A DNA stretch of 64,000 nt from contig NZ_CP049865.1 in the NCBI RefSeq assembly GCF_011393335.1, positions 3,118,722 through 3,182,721 on the forward strand, written 5' to 3'. Position numbers and translations under genes: made by a program. Of the stretch, positions 2,837 to 61,979 are shown piece after piece. A model generated the notes under the pieces. It saw only the letters and a program-made list of their open reading frames with translations. It was not told where the DNA came from and searched no databases. The first letter of the stretch is position 1; every line of letters starts with the position of its first letter. This DNA is from Propioniciclava coleopterorum (GTDB lineage Bacteria; Actinomycetota; Actinomycetes; Propionibacteriales; Propionibacteriaceae).

Positions 2837-4026
2837 TGAAGGCGCTTCTGCTCGAGAACATCCATACCAACGGCGTCCGGCTCCTGACGGAGCGCGGGTT
2901 CGACGTCGTGACCATGCCCGGTGCCCTGGGGGAGGACGACCTCATCGAGGCGTTGCAGGGCGTCGACGTCCTGGGCATCCGTTCCAACACCCACCTGACG
3001 CCGCGCGTCCTGGCCGAGGCAGACTCGCTCAAGGCCGTGGGCGCCTTCTGCATCGGCACCAACCAGATCGCCCTGGACGAGGCCACGCGGCGCGGCATCG
3101 CCGTCTTCAACGCGCCCTACAGCAACACCCGCTCGGTGGTGGAGTTGGCCATCGGGGAGATCATCGCGATGGCGCGGCACCTCACCGACCACAACGCCAA
3201 GATGCACGCCGGGGAGTGGGTCAAGTCCGCCAAGGGCAGCCACGAGATCCGCGGCCGGTCGCTCGGCCTAGTCGGCTACGGCAACATCGGCAGCCAGTTG
3301 TCGGTGGTGGCCGAATCGCTGGGCATGCAGGTGTACTTCTACGACATCGTGGACAAGCTCGCCCTGGGCAACGCCCGCCGCAGCGGCAGCCTCGAGGAGT
3401 TGCTGGCCGAGGCGGAGACCATCTCGCTGCACGTCGACGGCCGCCCCGCCAACCGCGGCTTCTTCGGCGCCGAGCAGTTCGCGCAGATGCGGCCCCGCTC
3501 GCTGTTCCTCAACCTGTCGCGCGGCTTCGTCGTCGACACCGCCGCCCTGAAGGACGCCCTGGATTCCGGGCACGTGGCCGGCGCGGCCGTGGACGTGTTC
3601 GAGACCGAGCCGAAGAAGAACGGCCAGGAGTTCACCAACCCGCTGCGCGGCACGCCGAACGTCATCCTGACCCCGCACGTGGCCGGCTCGACCGAGGAGG
3701 CCCAGCAGAACATCGGCTCTTTCGTGGCCGGCAAGCTCGCCGACTACGTGGAGTCCGGCTCGACGGTGCTGTCGGTCAACCTGCCGCCGGTGCAGGCGCA
3801 CCGCGGCGACGGCCGCCGGATCACGCACCTGCACCAGAACGTGCCGGGCGTCCTCGCCTCGATCAACACGCTGCTGGCCGGCTACGGCACGAACATCGTG
3901 GGCCAGACCCTGGCCACCAAGGGCCAGGTCGGCTACGTGGTGCTCGACATCGCCGGCGAGCTGGACCCGGCCGCGATCGACGCGCTGCGCTCGATGCCCG
4001 AGACCATCCGCGTCGAGGTGCACTGA
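2836..4026 (+). CDS. serA: D-3-phosphoglycerate dehydrogenase
   Basis: First enzyme of phosphorylated serine synthesis: oxidises 3-phosphoglycerate to 3-phosphohydroxypyruvate with NAD, in the cytosol. 396 residues, the shorter (E. coli-like) type with one C-terminal ACT domain (about residues 325-396) for feedback control. The NAD-binding loop GYGNIG and the catalytic Arg (NLSRG), Glu (DVFETEP) and His (LTPHVAGS) are all visible. The GTG start fits the leaderless -10 box upstream. It is convergent with hisN across a stretch containing two strong hairpins. Confidence 0.96.
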   Translation: MKALLLENIHTNGVRLLTERGFDVVTMPGALGEDDLIEALQGVDVLGIRSNTHLTPRVLAEADSLKAVGAFCIGTNQIALDEATRRGIAVFNAPYSNTRSVVELAIGEIIAMARHLTDHNAKMHAGEWVKSAKGSHEIRGRSLGLVGYGNIGSQLSVVAESLGMQVYFYDIVDKLALGNARRSGSLEELLAEAETISLHVDGRPANRGFFGAEQFAQMRPRSLFLNLSRGFVVDTAALKDALDSGHVAGAAVDVFETEPKKNGQEFTNPLRGTPNVILTPHVAGSTEEAQQNIGSFVAGKLADYVESGSTVLSVNLPPVQAHRGDGRRITHLHQNVPGVLASINTLLAGYGTNIVGQTLATKGQVGYVVLDIAGELDPAAIDALRSMPETIRVEVH

Positions 4027-54804: not shown

Positions 54805-57634
54805 GACCCCGGACGACGACCGCACCACCCCGGCGGAGCGTCGGGAGCCGGACCCGATCGGCGCCGAGGTGGTCGGTGAGCAGCGGTTCCCCGCGCCCGG
54901 GCCGGCCTACGCCGAGTTCGAGGCGGCCTTCCCGTTCGCGCTGGACCCCTACCAGCGCGACGGCTGCGCCGTCGTGGAGGCGGGCGCCGGCGTCCTGGTG
55001 GCGGCGCCGACGGGGGCGGGCAAGACCGTCGTGGGGGAGTTCGCGGTGTTCCTGGCGCTGCGCCAGGGCAAGCGCTGCTTCTACACCACGCCCATCAAGG
55101 CGCTGAGCAACCAGAAGTACCACGACCTGGTCGAGCGGTTCGGGACGCACCGCGTCGGCCTGTTGACCGGTGACACCTCGATCAACGGTGACGCCGACGT
55201 GGTCGTCATGACGACCGAGGTGCTGCGCAACATGATCTACGCCGGCTCCTCGGCGCTGCGGAACCTGGGCTTCGTCGTGATGGACGAGGTGCACTACCTC
55301 GCCGACCGGTTCCGCGGCGCGGTCTGGGAGGAGGTCATCATCGGCCTGGCGCCCAGCGTGCAGCTGGTGTCGCTGTCGGCGACGGTCTCCAACGCCGAGG
55401 AGTTCGGCGACTGGCTCGGTGAGGTGCGCGGCGACGTCCGGGTGGTGCTGAGCGAGCGGCGTCCGGTGCCGCTGTTCCAGCACGTGATGGCCGGACGCCG
55501 GCTCTACGACCTGTTCAGCGACGAGGCGCCCACGGCGTCCGCGCTGCCGGTGAAGGGCGACGTCAACCCCGAACTCGTCAAGCTGGCCAAGTCGGACGCC
55601 AAGTACGTCCGCGACGACAGCCGCACCCGCCGCGGCCGGCGGACGCGGGACCGGATCGAGCGCAACCAGGCCGGACGCGGCGACCGCGGCCCGAACCTGG
55701 TTCCCCGCCGCGACGGCGCGGTGGAGAAGCTCGAGGCCGAGGGCCTGCTGCCGGCGATCTACTTCATCTTCAGTCGGGTGGGCTGCGACGCCGCCGTGGG
55801 CCAGCTGCTGCACTCCGGCCTGCGGCTCACCACGCCCGACGAGCGGGCCCGCCTGGAGGCGATCGCGGACGCCGTGGCGTCGGGACTGAGCCCAGAAGAC
55901 CTGGACGCGCTGGAGTTCGGCACGTTCCGCGAGGGGCTGCGCCGCGGGATCGCCGCCCACCACGCCGGCATGCTCCCGGCGTTCAAGGAGGCCGTCGAGC
56001 AGGGCTTCGTCGAGGGTCTGGTCAAGGTCGTGTTCGCCACCGAGACGCTCGCGCTGGGCATCAACATGCCCGCCCGCAGCGTCGTGCTGGAGAAGCTGGT
56101 CAAGTACAACGGCGAGGCCCACGTCGACATCACGCCGGGGGAGTACACCCAGCTCACCGGGCGGGCCGGGCGGCGCGGCATCGACGTCGAGGGACACGCG
56201 GTCGTGCTGTGGCAGCGCGACATCGACCCGCGGCAGGTCGCGGGGTTGGCGTCCCGGCGCACCTACCCGCTGCGGAGCTCGTTCAGCCCCACCTACAACA
56301 TGGCGGTCAACCTGGTCGGGCGGGTCGGGCCCGAACGGGCCCGGGGCCTGCTGGAGCAGTCGTTCGCGCAGTACCAGACCGACAAGTCGGTGGTCGGCGT
56401 CGCCCGCGCGGTGGCCCGCAACACCGACCGGATCGCCGCCCTGTGGCGCGACGCCGCCTGCGAGGCCGGCGACTTCGAGGCGTACGCCCGGGGGCGTGCC
56501 GAGATCAAGCGGCTCGAGAACGAGTCCGCCAAGAGCCGGCGCACCGACCGCCGCGCCGAGGCGATCTCCGCGCTGCTGGAGCTGGTGCCCGGCGACATCA
56601 TCGGCGTGCCGGCGGGCCGGCACGAGGGGTGGGCCGTCGTGGTCGACCCCGGCAAGCGGGACCGCGGCAACCCCACGCCCACCGTGATGACCGAGCAGCG
56701 CCAGCTCAAGAAGCTCTCGCTCACCGACTTCCCCTCGCCGCCGGCGGTGGCGGGCCGGATGCGGGTGCCCAAGCACTTCGACCCCCGGCAGGCCAAGGAC
56801 CGGCGCAACCTGTCGGCGGCCTTCCACAGCAAGCTGGCGGGGATCGACACCCGCGCGTCCCGCTACGTGCCCGCCGCGATGGACGCCGAGGTCACCGAGA
56901 AGATCGACGCGCTGCGCGCCGAGTTGAAGGCGCACCCCGTGCACGGCTGCCCCGACCGCGAGGCGCACTCCCGTGCCGCGGAGAAGGCGCTTCGGCTGGA
57001 GCGCGACACCGCCGACCTGCGCCGCCAGGTCGAGCGCCGCTCCAACACCATCGCGCTGCGCTTCGACCGGATCTGCTCGGTGCTGCGCGCGCTGGGCTAT
57101 CTCTCCGGGGACGGCCGACGCGTCACGCCCGCCGGCGCGATGCTGGCCCGGATCTACTCCGAGCTGGACCTGGTGGCGGCCGAGGCGATCCGCGCCGGGG
57201 TGTTCGACGAACTCACCGCGCCCGAGTTCGCCGCGGTGGCGAGCAGCCTGACCTACGAGTCCCGCGGCGGGGAGCAGAAGCGTCCGGCGCGGATGCCGAA
57301 CCGCTCCACCGAGATCGCCCAGTCGGCGATCCGGCACATCTGGCGCGACCTGTCGCTGATGGAGCGCGACCACAAGCTGGATCCCTCCCGCGACCCCGAC
57401 ATCGGCTTCGCCGAGGCCACGTTCGCGTGGGCGTCCGGCGAGGACCTGGCCGGCATCCTGGCGGCCACCGACCTGACCGCGGGCGACTTCGTCCGCTCGA
57501 TGCGCATGGTGATCGACCTGCTCGGCCAACTCGCGGACGCCGCCGGCCAGGGCGTCGTGCGCGCGACCGCCCGCGAGGCGATCGACATGCTGCGTCGCGG
57601 CGTGGTGAGCGCCGCCTACGACGAGGACGACTGA
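54797..57634 (+). CDS. helY: Ski2-like DEAD/DEAH-box helicase HelY
   Basis: 945 residues. Motif I APTGAGKT, Ia TTPIKALSNQKY, II MDEVHYLAD, III SLSATVSN, and VI LTGRAGRRG are present; the C-terminal half holds the DSHCT-type domain (LGYLSGDG, DFVRSMRMVIDLLGQLADAA). Relative of RNA-exosome helicases, thought to act on RNA. GTG 54797. A 607-base non-coding repeat region follows. Confidence 0.92.
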   Translation: MTETPDDDRTTPAERREPDPIGAEVVGEQRFPAPGPAYAEFEAAFPFALDPYQRDGCAVVEAGAGVLVAAPTGAGKTVVGEFAVFLALRQGKRCFYTTPIKALSNQKYHDLVERFGTHRVGLLTGDTSINGDADVVVMTTEVLRNMIYAGSSALRNLGFVVMDEVHYLADRFRGAVWEEVIIGLAPSVQLVSLSATVSNAEEFGDWLGEVRGDVRVVLSERRPVPLFQHVMAGRRLYDLFSDEAPTASALPVKGDVNPELVKLAKSDAKYVRDDSRTRRGRRTRDRIERNQAGRGDRGPNLVPRRDGAVEKLEAEGLLPAIYFIFSRVGCDAAVGQLLHSGLRLTTPDERARLEAIADAVASGLSPEDLDALEFGTFREGLRRGIAAHHAGMLPAFKEAVEQGFVEGLVKVVFATETLALGINMPARSVVLEKLVKYNGEAHVDITPGEYTQLTGRAGRRGIDVEGHAVVLWQRDIDPRQVAGLASRRTYPLRSSFSPTYNMAVNLVGRVGPERARGLLEQSFAQYQTDKSVVGVARAVARNTDRIAALWRDAACEAGDFEAYARGRAEIKRLENESAKSRRTDRRAEAISALLELVPGDIIGVPAGRHEGWAVVVDPGKRDRGNPTPTVMTEQRQLKKLSLTDFPSPPAVAGRMRVPKHFDPRQAKDRRNLSAAFHSKLAGIDTRASRYVPAAMDAEVTEKIDALRAELKAHPVHGCPDREAHSRAAEKALRLERDTADLRRQVERRSNTIALRFDRICSVLRALGYLSGDGRRVTPAGAMLARIYSELDLVAAEAIRAGVFDELTAPEFAAVASSLTYESRGGEQKRPARMPNRSTEIAQSAIRHIWRDLSLMERDHKLDPSRDPDIGFAEATFAWASGEDLAGILAATDLTAGDFVRSMRMVIDLLGQLADAAGQGVVRATAREAIDMLRRGVVSAAYDEDD

Positions 57635-57678
57635 CCCGTAGCGCCCGGCTGCTCATCCGCGTCCGCGCGCCCGCGTCC

Positions 57679-57740
57679 GCGACGGCGCCCGTCCCGCGAC
57701 GGCGCCCGTCCCGCGACGGCGCCCGTCCCGCGACGGCGCC
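57679..57740. repeat. Perfect 17-bp tandem repeat, 3.6 copies
   Basis: Unit GCGACGGCGCCCGTCCC occurs exactly at 57679-57695, 57696-57712 and 57713-57729, then an 11-base partial copy to 57740. It begins the repeat-rich 607-base gap after helY. No coding role is seen. Confidence 0.9.
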
Positions 57741-57753
57741 TCAATGGTCGCAG

Positions 57754-58045
57754 TCGCCCCCTTTCGGGACGAGGCGCCCCCGTTCGTGGCGAGTCGCCCC
57801 CGTTCGGGACGAGGCGCCCCCGTTTGGGACGAGGCCGCCCCGTTGGTCGCAGACGCCCGCGTTCCTGCGGGGGTATCTGACGCAAACGGGGGCGTCTGTG
57901 CGACGCGGCGTCCGCATTCGTCGTAGCCGCCCCCGTTCGTGACGAGCCGCCCCCTTCTGGGACGAGCCGCCCCCACTCGGGGCGAGCCGCCCCCGTTCGG
58001 GACGAGGCGCCCCCTTTTGGGACGAGTTGCCCCCGTTGAACGCAG
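57754..58045. repeat. 20-bp tandem repeats in two blocks
   Basis: Consensus GCCGCCCCCGTTCGGGACGA with exactly 20-bp spacing. Five copies start at 57754, 57774, 57794, 57814 and 57834; six start at 57926, 57946, 57966, 57986, 58006 and 58026. Copies differ at a few bases (GTT/CTT/ACT, GGGA/GTGA). The two blocks are separated by the first of two duplicated hairpin elements. No spacers, so not CRISPR. 20 is not a multiple of 3 and open frames on the minus strand are a base-composition effect. Confidence 0.85.
57850..57898. repeat. Duplicated 49-bp hairpin element, copy 1
   Basis: CAGACGCCCGCGTT (57850-57863) and AACGGGGGCGTCTG (57885-57898) form a 14-bp stem with one mismatch. 45 of 49 bases match copy 2 at 58043. 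It ends the first 20-bp block. Confidence 0.8.
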
Positions 58046-58091
58046 ACGCCCCCGTTCCTGCGGGGGCGTCTGACGCAAACGGGGGCGGCTG
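58043..58091. repeat. Duplicated 49-bp hairpin element, copy 2
   Basis: CAGACGCCCCCGTT (58043-58056) can pair either with GGGGGCGTCTG (58062-58072, 11 bp perfect, 5-base loop GTTCCTGC-side) or with AACGGGGGCGGCTG (58078-58091). Two exclusive folds are possible. It ends the second 20-bp block. Between 58092 and 58241 nothing else is recognised. Confidence 0.75.
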
Positions 58092-58241
58092 CAACAACCA
58101 CCACCTCATCAGCGGGCAGGAGCGGCCAGACCCGCCCCGACCGGGCAATCCGGGCCACCACGCACGCGGGAGCCGCCGCGGCGCTAGCCTCGCTCCCGGG
58201 CGTCCGCCGGTGCCCGCAGGCCCGAAGGATGTGCCCCGACC

Positions 58242-58766
58242 ATGCTCGACACGCTGCGCACCGTCCTGGCGCGCGCCCTCATCGTCGCCGGGCGCGTCCT
58301 GCTCGTGGCGACGGTCCTGATGGCCGTCTGGGTCGGGTACCGGGCGGCGTCGGTGACCGAGAGCGAGGTCGTCGGCCTGTTCGTCCTGCTGGCGGCGTCC
58401 GGCTCGGTGTGGCCGATGCTGCTGCTGCCGATGGCCTCGGCGGCGCTGGCCACCACCGGGGGAGGGATCTCCGCGGAGACGGTGCTCGGCAGGCGGTCCG
58501 TGGCGGAGGTGCGCGTCGTGCACGCCCTGCGCCTCCCGGGCCACGTGTGGGGCTACCAGGTCGAGGTGGTGCTGGGGCGAGGCTGGCTGATCGTCGCATC
58601 GTCGGAACTGTGGGAGTGGCCGGACGACTACGGGCTGGGCGCCGTGCCGCAGGTCATCCACCCGTGGTGGACCGGCTGGCTGGTCATGGCGGGCTGGATG
58701 CTCGGCGGGCTCGCCGCGATCGCGCTCGGGTTCGGGCTGCTCGCCTGGCTGGTCCCCGCCGGGTGA
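58242..58766 (+). CDS. Membrane protein, unknown function
   Basis: 174 residues, not recognised. Hydrophobic helices at about 10-32 ([21 protein letters not shown]), 43-72 ([20 protein letters not shown]) and 146-170 ([24 protein letters not shown]) flank a soluble beta-rich stretch ([21 protein letters not shown]). AAGGA 13 bases before ATG 58242. It lies between the repeat region and hisF; a leaderless -10 for hisF follows. Confidence 0.65.
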
Positions 58767-58796
58767 ACCCGGTCCGCTGAACCCCGCTGCGATGGA

Positions 58797-60183: not shown

Positions 60184-60234
60184 CTTTGCAACGAGGCAGT
60201 CCGCACACCGAACCGATCGAAGGGGATGATCACG

Positions 60235-61979
60235 ATGACGCAGGAGCAGCAGCCCAAGACGTTGACCGGAGCCCAGGCGCTGGTCGAGTCGCTGGAGCGC
60301 CTCGGGGTCGACGTCGTATTCGGCATCCCGGGCGGCGCGATCCTTCCGGCCTACGACCCGCTGGGCCAGAGCGAACTCGTCAACCACATCCTCGTCCGCC
60401 ACGAGCAGGGCGCGGCGCACGCCGCCGAGGGCTACGCCATGACCACCGGACGCGTCGGCGTCTGCATGGCCACCTCCGGGCCGGGCGCCACCAACCTGGT
60501 GACCGGCATCGCGGACGCCTACCTCGACTCGGTGCCGATCGTGGCCATCACCGGCCAGGTGGCCTCGGGCGCCATCGGCACCGACGCCTTCCAGGAGGCC
60601 GACATCCGGGGCATCACGTTCCCGATCACGAAGCACTCCTTCCTGATCACGCGGCCCCAGGACATCCCCGGCGCGCTCAAGGCGGCGTTCCACATCGCCG
60701 CGACCGGACGCCCCGGGCCCGTCCTGGTCGACATCTCCAAGGACGCGCTGGCGGCCACCGCGCCGTTCGTGTGGCCCACCGAGCTCGACCTGCCCGGCTA
60801 CAAGCCCACCGTGACGCCGCACGCCAAGCAGATCCGCGAGGCGGCCCGCCTGATCCGGGACGCGCAGCGTCCGGTGCTGTACGTGGGCGGCGGCATCGTG
60901 AAGGCCGAGGCGTACGAGGCCCTGGCCGAGCTGGTGAAGATCACGCAGATCCCGCTCGTCACGACGCTGATGGCGCGCGGCGCGTTCCCCGACAGCGACC
61001 CGCTGAACATGGGCATGCCCGGCATGCACGGCACCGTGTCGGCGGTGGCCGCGCTGCAGAAGGCCGACCTGCTCATCACGCTCGGCGCCCGCTTCGACGA
61101 CCGCGTCACGGGCAAGCTGGACACGTTCGCCCCAACGCCAAGGTGATCCACGCCGACGTCGACCCGGCCGAGATCGGCAAGAACCGCAACCCCGACGTCC
61201 CGATCGTGGGCGACGTCAAGCTGGTGATCGAGGCGCTGAACGAGGTGCTGCGCGGCGAGGATTCCGCCGACCACAGCGCCTGGACGGCCTACCTGCAGGG
61301 GCTCAAGACCAAGTACAAGGTCGAGCCGGAGACCACGAAGGACGGCCAGCTCAGCCCCGAGTACGTCATCAAGCGGATCGGTGAGCTGTCCGGCGACGCC
61401 TACTACGTCGCCGGCGTCGGCCAGCACCAGATGTGGGCCGCGCACCTGCTGCCGTTCGAGAAGCCCGGCCGCTGGCTCAACAGCGGCGGCGCCGGGACGA
61501 TGGGCTACTGTGTGCCGGCCGCCATGGGCGCGCAGGTCGGCGTCCCGGGCGAGCTGGTGTGGGGCATCGACGGCGACGGCTGCTTCCAGATGACCAACCA
61601 GGAGCTCGTCACCTGCACGCTGAACAACATCCCCATCAAGATCGCGGTGATCAACAACGAGTCCCTGGGCATGGTGCGGCAGTGGCAGACGCTGTTCTAC
61701 GGCGAGCGCTACTCCAACACCGACCTCAACAGCCGCCGGGTTCCCGACTTCCCGATGCTCGCCGAGGCGATGGGGGCCGTCGGCCTGCGCGCCGAGACGC
61801 CCGAGGAGGTCGACGAGGTCATCAAGAAGGCCCTCGAGATCAACGACCGCCCGGTGGTGGTGGAGTTCCTGGTCCACAAGGACGCGATGGTGTGGCCGAT
61901 GGTCCCGGCCGGCACCAGCAACGACGACATCCTGATCGCCAAGGACCTGGCGCCCGACTGGGAGGAAGAGATCCTGTGA
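60235..61979 (+). CDS. ilvB: Acetolactate synthase large subunit, frame broken
   Basis: First common enzyme of Ile, Val and Leu synthesis, thiamine-dependent; 581 residues after repair. ATG 60235 is preferred over 60226 because AAGGGG is 9 bases upstream. The TPP glutamate is in VRHEQGAAH, with [16 protein letters not shown], and [18 protein letters not shown] binds TPP-Mg. After KLDTFAP the frame breaks in the CCCC at 61130-61133; one extra C restores [20 protein letters not shown]. Regulated by the attenuator upstream. Confidence 0.95.

What the first reader, a model, noticed from the sequence alone, without database searches (positions are those of the whole stretch)
57679..58091. Layered repeat region after helY: 17-bp, 20-bp and duplicated hairpin elements
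A 412-base non-coding stretch holds 3.6 perfect 17-bp repeats, 11 copies of an exactly spaced 20-bp unit in two blocks, and each block ends with a 49-bp hairpin element (45/49 identical between copies). The order [20-mer]5-hairpin-[20-mer]6-hairpin looks like the duplication of a composite unit. It could be a protein-binding array, a nucleoid or chromosome-organising site, or a variable-number locus.
Basis: seen in the sequence. Interest (0 to 1): 0.6.

Follow-up and report, generated by a model that had tools for sequence, protein, structure and literature searches.

The report
Dispersed hairpin elements with repeat arrays
The repeat patch after helY is one of about 37 copies of a long-hairpin element scattered between genes of this bacterium, built from a 20-base unit that has multiplied on one side; it probably helps to end or protect messenger RNAs, but that is not shown.

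Summary
The patch is one of 37 array-plus-hairpin clusters (about 72 hairpins) in a Propioniciclava-like genome. In every cluster 20-nt units lead into a nested hairpin, usually followed by an inverted unit. The inner stem arms are themselves units, roughly in 20-nt register, so the core is unit-unit-loop-unit'-unit', a ~70-nt palindrome whose 5' arm has expanded. 36 of 37 clusters lie between predicted genes, 18 of those 36 between convergent ones (12% of other gaps, p=4e-8). A model of the palindrome hits 28 of 198 Propionibacteriaceae genomes (8 of 29 genera), one genome elsewhere in a 391-genome sample of the order, and only this genome in a 396-genome phylum sample. Letters differ between species, and stem changes compensate. 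A congener has an analogous 22-nt array family; 18 of 41 arrays start within 15 nt of a sense stop codon (expected 5.9). Best reading: REP/BOX-like dispersed palindromes acting as U-less 3'-end (terminator-like) hairpins, with minisatellite expansion of one arm. Function is inferred.

The parts
57677..57740 (.). 17-bp tandem repeat, 3.8 perfect copies; one further single copy in the fetched own DNA (L060)
57753..57852 (+). Array block 1: five 20-nt units, the fifth degenerate and slipped by one base
57829..57899 (+). Nested hairpin 1 (last unit of the array + inner hairpin + inverted unit)
   Evidence: RNA model R1 match, fold -38.9 kcal/mol
57925..58044 (+). Array block 2: six 20-nt units at exact 20-nt spacing
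58023..58093 (+). Nested hairpin 2, the stronger one
   Evidence: RNA model R1 match, fold -57.1 kcal/mol, z -8.4
58242..58766 (+). Downstream predicted gene, same direction (174 aa, unidentified); a hisF-like ORF (identified by recall) follows at 58792/58801

Best explanation
The region is two tandem composites of a dispersed, palindromic, REP/BOX-like intergenic element of Propionibacteriaceae. The core is unit-unit-loop-unit'-unit' (about 70 bp, each unit about 20 nt, commonly with a GCnCCCG core). In this species the 5' unit has expanded into arrays by tandem duplication, and whole composites were duplicated again. Transcribed from the upstream gene, the last units and the inverted units fold into a very stable nested hairpin that acts as a U-tract-free, largely bidirectional 3'-end element (termination and/or protection of the mRNA 3' end); the extra 5' units are alternative 5' arms that the one set of 3' arms can pair with. 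Shown: anatomy, genome-wide family, intergenic and convergent bias, different letters in each species with kept architecture, strong predicted fold. Inferred: transcription, termination or protection, alternative pairing, slippage as the route of array growth. Unknown: how copies spread to new loci.
For: Own genome: 37 clusters and 144 both-strand model matches, about 72 hairpins. In all 37, units precede the first hairpin on the array strand; a scored inverted unit directly follows the last hairpin in 28. 18 of 36 clusters in convergent gaps against 18 of 146 other gaps of 40 bp or more in the same DNA (p=4e-8); 11 of 36 start within 30 nt of a sense stop, expected 4.8 (p=0.005). Model R2 hits 28 of 198 Propionibacteriaceae genomes including this one, 8 of 29 genera; 10 of the 27 others have 9 or more both-strand matches. 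Of 22 loci examined in other genomes 10 are convergent, 11 co-directional, 1 divergent, and the nearest facing stop is within 40 nt in 14. Stem changes compensate between species: 89 double-changed cells against 33.6 in shuffles, 0 of 500. Congener G009: 18 of 41 usable arrays start within 15 nt of a sense stop, expected 5.9, 0 of 5000 placements as high; a few run into inverted units. P. flava has 20 bp between the stop codons of two homologous convergent genes where this genome has a 1.4-kb cluster. Published work places predicted terminator hairpins near stop codons and finds U trails dispensable (PMC8355165, abstract and sections 9 and 13 read).
Against: No transcript data. No T-run follows the hairpins; the terminator scan finds none at them, only one short stem on the - strand just beyond (58101-58115). 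In co-directional gaps orientation is only 8 sense of 14, 10 of 36 clusters have no sense gene upstream, and within 15 nt of a stop the own genome shows no significant excess (4 vs 2.5, p=0.23). The window's 3 convergent gaps of 40 bp or more carry no element, so this is not the genome's general terminator. In G009 the convergent share is not raised if gaps are weighted by length (p=0.22). Within this genome alone pair changes do not exceed shuffles. Compensation between species can also come from palindrome correction during replication, without selection. P. flava, the closest named relative by helY, has no hit to R1 or R2.
Confidence: 0.5

Rival explanations
1. A purely selfish or neutral dispersed repeat (REP/MITE-like) with no host function; it accumulates downstream of genes and between convergent genes because insertions there do least harm, and arrays grow by slippage.
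For: Patchy families that differ between species; of the flanks compared only the helY slot was found occupied in more than one species, with partial DNA of relatives; the same convergent bias is read as a possible sign of parasitic repeats for pneumococcal BOX/RUP (PMC3049150, passages).
Against: No Y1/RAYT-type transposase in the genome. Starts 3-13 nt from sense stops in G009 are closer than random placement in the same gaps gives. Compensating stem changes across species. Core positions stay nearly fixed while linker positions of the same units vary.
Confidence: 0.33
2. A DNA-level binding array: each unit's core is the site of a protein that bends DNA or blocks RNA polymerase after the stop codon (roadblock), with fixed spacing of 20 or 22 bp.
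For: Fixed period; in G009 neighbouring units differ at 0-2% of the GCCCCG positions but 17-44% of linker positions (three other core positions vary at 10-27%), with linker length kept. In the fetched DNA the longer core is nearly confined to arrays (own 6 outside vs 181 inside, G009 1 vs 150; a shorter 9-base own core 38 outside vs 236 inside).
Against: Core letters differ between species while the palindrome is kept, which fits base pairing better than one conserved protein. No candidate protein was sought.
Confidence: 0.13
3. Assembly artefact or plain local minisatellite.
For: Repetitive and GC-rich; the draft relative G006 has two of its hits at contig ends.
Against: Single-contig genome with diverged copies at 37 places, each with its own variants.
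Confidence: 0.02

Closest known systems
Pneumococcal BOX elements (boxA-boxB(n)-boxC)
   Same: Modular dispersed repeat, variable number of an internal module, predicted stem-loop when transcribed, over-represented between convergent genes (PMC3049150, passages read)
   Different: Here the variable module is the 5' arm of the palindrome itself, 20 nt not about 45 nt (boxB length recalled), in GC-rich DNA; target duplications were not tested; sequences were not compared
REP/BIME elements (GTAG- and CGTC-tagged REPs)
   Same: Many-copy palindromes, discussed as terminators or mRNA stabilisers (PMC3733652, abstract and passages)
   Different: About 70 bp nested palindrome against 20-40 bp, no unpaired GTAG or CGTC tag in the consensus, no Y1 transposase in the genome; the word Actinobacteria has 0 occurrences in that paper's main text
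U-tract-free intrinsic terminators / hairpin clusters
   Same: Strong hairpins shortly after stop codons, no U run needed (PMC8355165, abstract and sections 9 and 13)
   Different: There hairpins are predicted gene by gene; here one repeat family is spread over the genome and carries tandem arrays
Intergenic TAACTGA direct repeats of Beggiatoaceae
   Same: Abundant short direct-repeat sets between genes, thought regulatory (PMC4679880, search listing only)
   Different: Heptamers; no palindrome mentioned in the listing

Membership tests
REP elements | Many intergenic palindromic copies per genome | tested here: met
   About 72 hairpins; 36 of 37 clusters between predicted genes
REP elements | Unpaired GTAG or CGTC tag at one end | tested here: not met
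   By eye on the alignments: no GTAG in the consensus; CGTC lies in the stem (GCGTCTG facing CAGACGC)
REP elements | RAYT (Y1 transposase) in the genome | tested here: not met
   PF01797: 0 matches in own genome, found in 5 of 14 controls; [quoted passage not shown]
BOX elements | Modular element with a variable-copy module | tested here: met
   68 in-register unit runs of 3 to 15 units
BOX elements | boxA/boxB/boxC sequence | not tested
   Sequences not compared
Intrinsic terminator | Stable hairpin downstream of a stop codon | tested here: inconclusive
   MFE median -46.9 kcal/mol over 73 windows (a few off-centre); 26 of 36 clusters have a sense gene upstream, 11 of 36 within 30 nt
Intrinsic terminator | U-tract after the stem | tested here: not met
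   No such site at either window hairpin; not needed in many bacteria
Intrinsic terminator | Transcript ends there in vivo | not testable with these tools
   No transcript data
VNTR locus | Copy number differs among strains | not testable with these tools
   One genome per species held
Uptake-signal repeats (DUS/USS) | Short motif scattered singly over the genome, genes included (recalled) | tested here: not met
   In the fetched DNA the core is nearly confined to arrays: own 6 outside vs 181 inside; G009 1 vs 150; whole genome not scanned for single cores
Rfam RNA families | Match above gathering score | tested here: not met
   Only two matches far below gathering score in 57400-58400

The most novel reading that the evidence does not exclude
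Propionibacteriaceae maintain a family-specific class of 3'-end elements whose architecture (20-22-nt unit tandem, then inverted units) is conserved while the letters are rewritten in each species, and unit arrays are grown directly after stop codons; this implies a host factor or copying process that reads the architecture rather than a fixed sequence, and a graded, copy-number-tunable transcription end signal.
Probability: 0.15. Interest if true: 0.75.

Novelty: new variant of a known kind. Interest (0 to 1): 0.45.

Why it matters
It would be a new, taxonomically bounded class of bacterial interspersed repeat, and one whose copy series (two units per arm in the relatives read, long one-sided arrays here) lets the growth of such arrays be followed. 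If the hairpins end transcripts, they are natural tests of how high-GC bacteria terminate without U-tracts, and whether unit number tunes the effect.

Tried and rejected
Rfam scan: nothing above threshold. Protein-coding reading of the array: a 20-nt period does not keep a frame; not pursued. Y1/RAYT mobility: absent. Uptake-sequence reading: core not scattered in the fetched DNA. CRISPR-like reading: variable parts are a narrow set of look-alike linkers, not unique spacers; cas genes were not searched. Phage or plasmid origin: no match in 50,697 phage and 72,556 plasmid records. Exact two-unit pattern in 84,980 species genomes: 0; this is a weak negative, since the pattern matches only 15 places in 8 of the 37 own pieces tested and the own or a very near genome may be left out. 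Weak DNA hits in other genomes: L068 and L069 look by eye like chance matches inside genes, L070 is a real single-copy element; L071 and L072 were not read. De novo search for another array family in samples of P. flava (558 kb), Nigerium massiliense (180 kb) and G005 (60 kb): isolated tandem repeats, but no gap similar to more than one other gap. Shared slots between own clusters and G009/G001 arrays: only helY found; the relatives' DNA held was partial, so this too is a weak negative. Literature: searches listed no paper on such elements in Propionibacteriaceae (only the top of long listings was shown; the library is open-access PMC only).

Full report
Observation. The fifth unit of block 1 is degenerate and slipped by one base. 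The hairpins are larger than described: the last array unit pairs with the inverted unit that follows the inner hairpin, so each is a nested hairpin of about 71 nt (57829-57899 and 58023-58093). Hairpin 2 folds at -57.1 kcal/mol against -30.1 in shuffles; hairpin 1 is weaker (z -2.75), and the array block tested on its own has no fold beyond shuffles.

Genome-wide family. The window lies in a 3.67-Mb single-contig genome. Its nearest named relatives by helY are Propioniciclava flava (85%) and Nigerium massiliense (73%), so it is a Propioniciclava-like member of Propionibacteriaceae; its own name is not given. A search with the region gave 132 matches. I fetched 36 stretches round them. In these and the window a unit matrix and a hairpin profile define 37 clusters; three stretches (L060, L063, L066) hold no cluster, and two of the 73 hairpins stand outside clusters. 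A covariance model (R1, from 57 of the 73 hairpins) finds 144 matches in the genome, about 72 hairpins since the palindrome matches on both strands; 150 candidates were scored, so a few more could exist. In all 37 clusters units precede the first hairpin on the array strand (the strand with more units); a scored inverted unit directly follows the last hairpin in 28; in four (L043, L059, L062, L065) same-strand units also follow the last hairpin. The loop occurs in two orientations relative to the array (25, 37 and 11 unclear of 73); in 17 of 19 stretches with two or more classifiable hairpins it is uniform (counted), which fits duplication of whole composites within loci.

Anatomy. The inner stem arm, CAG(TT or AC)GCCC and on, is itself a unit, roughly in 20-nt register with the array (my reading). 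The core element is therefore unit-unit-loop-unit'-unit', with the 5' side expanded. Neighbouring units within arrays differ little at the GCCC core (1-8%) and more at other positions (up to 38%), at constant period; units within a run are 80.5% identical against 72.8% between runs, as expected from local duplication plus constraint on the core.

Position. 36 of 37 clusters are free of predicted genes. Eighteen of 36 lie between convergent genes, against 18 of 146 other gaps of at least 40 bp in the same DNA (p=4e-8). Eleven of 36 arrays start within 30 nt of a sense stop codon (expected 4.8, p=0.005), but at 15 nt the excess is not significant (4 vs 2.5), and in co-directional gaps only 8 of 14 are in sense. 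Gene calls come from my own codon-usage script, not from an annotation.

Relatives. Within the genus R1 finds G006 (10 matches, five palindromes, no clear array in those read; one apparently follows the 3' half of a tRNA at a contig start, by eye, ARAGORN finds no complete gene there) and single weak hits in G001 and G012; 9 of the 12 congeners have none, including P. flava. The slot after helY is occupied by other repeats in two congeners: a different nested hairpin in G001 and a 22-nt array in G009. Each proved to be a dispersed family: the hairpin has 20 both-strand matches in G001, 33 in G012 and 2 in G009; the 22-nt array has 62 matches in G009, 1 in G001 and weak ones in G002 (4) and G007 (7). 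Neither is found in the own genome. In G009, 45 arrays were delimited, 41 usable (three overlap a predicted ORF, one lacks a right-hand gene); 18 of 41 start 3-13 nt after a sense stop (expected 5.9; none of 5000 random placements as high), most begin and end with the core GCCGASAGCCCC, and a few run into inverted units. R2 does not hit G009, so its arrays are an analogue, not a proven relative. At one own cluster (L059) P. flava has homologues of both flanking convergent genes (73% and 50% identical) with 20 bp between their stop codons, holding most of a small GACGCCT/AGGCGTC hairpin.

Wider family. R1 hits pointed to another genus (5 of 198 family genomes) with near-perfect nested palindromes in different letters, again with arms of two roughly 20-nt copies. 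An alignment of 22 palindromes from five genomes keeps pairing through change: 85.7% of cells paired (75.0 in shuffles), 89 double-changed cells (33.6), 18 pairs with double changes (13.6), none of 500 shuffles as high on these three. Caveats: some sequences were found through a model with 10 pairs, related sequences inflate such counts, and palindrome correction could produce the pattern. The model R2 built from it hits 28 of 198 Propionibacteriaceae genomes, this one included, in 8 of 29 genera at E<=1e-5 (at most 25 candidates scored per genome, stricter filters, E-values rough). In 391 genomes of the order it hits 25, all but one (G652) in this family, and in a 396-genome phylum sample only the own genome (12 candidates scored per genome in both). 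Of 22 loci examined in other genomes, 10 are convergent, 11 co-directional, 1 divergent (three of the 25 loci were dropped: the own locus L298, the short L312, and L314, whose match is longer than the model).

Interpretation. The descriptive claim, a dispersed palindromic element family with one-sided unit expansion, is well supported. The functional claim is weaker. Position near stops and between convergent genes, hairpin strength and compensation point to an RNA 3'-end role; the missing U-tract is no bar (PMC8355165, sections 9 and 13). But the same positions suit a harmless parasite, as considered for BOX and RUP (PMC3049150, passages), and the window's 3 convergent gaps carry no element, so it is not a general terminator. 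A protein-binding array remains possible because of the constant core and constant spacing.

Known kinds. It works like REP/BIME and BOX elements and perhaps like U-free terminators. It fails the tag and transposase features of tagged REPs, so I do not file it as one. BOX is the closest in design (variable module inside a folding element), but sequence relation was not tested. RepRanger's table of genomes includes Acidipropionibacterium thoenii (PMC12306157, passages), without a description of this architecture in the passages seen.

Noticed in passing
window 60226-61979: The acetolactate-synthase-like large-subunit gene (recalled identification) appears as two ORFs in different frames overlapping near 61143 (60226-61146 and 61143-61979), followed by a small-subunit-like ORF: a frameshift, sequencing error or split gene.
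   Followed up: no
L151 (G009) near 3172-3215 and L166 (G001) near 3161-3219: The 22-nt array lies inside an amidohydrolase-like ORF (recalled identification) in both species, three units in register (66 nt), so it may be read as an in-frame insert; it is the only match to that family in G001.
   Followed up: partly
L129, L136, L153, L154 (G009): A second repeat with units such as AACCCAAGCCCTCGGCGGACTG follows some arrays and resembles an inverted, diverged version of the array unit.
   Followed up: no
L308 (G072) and L316 (G077): Another genus has palindromes with apparently more than two units per arm (GACGCCACC... units), hinting at independent array growth.
   Followed up: no
window 57677-57740: The 17-mer array is perfect and, in the fetched own DNA, has only one further single copy (L060), unlike the 20-mer family, so it is probably a separate and recent tandem expansion.
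   Followed up: partly
L131 3205-3270 and L145 3139-3248 (G009): Two G009 arrays lie close to tRNA genes (tRNA-Ala at L131 3339, tRNA-Gln at L145 3045).
   Followed up: no
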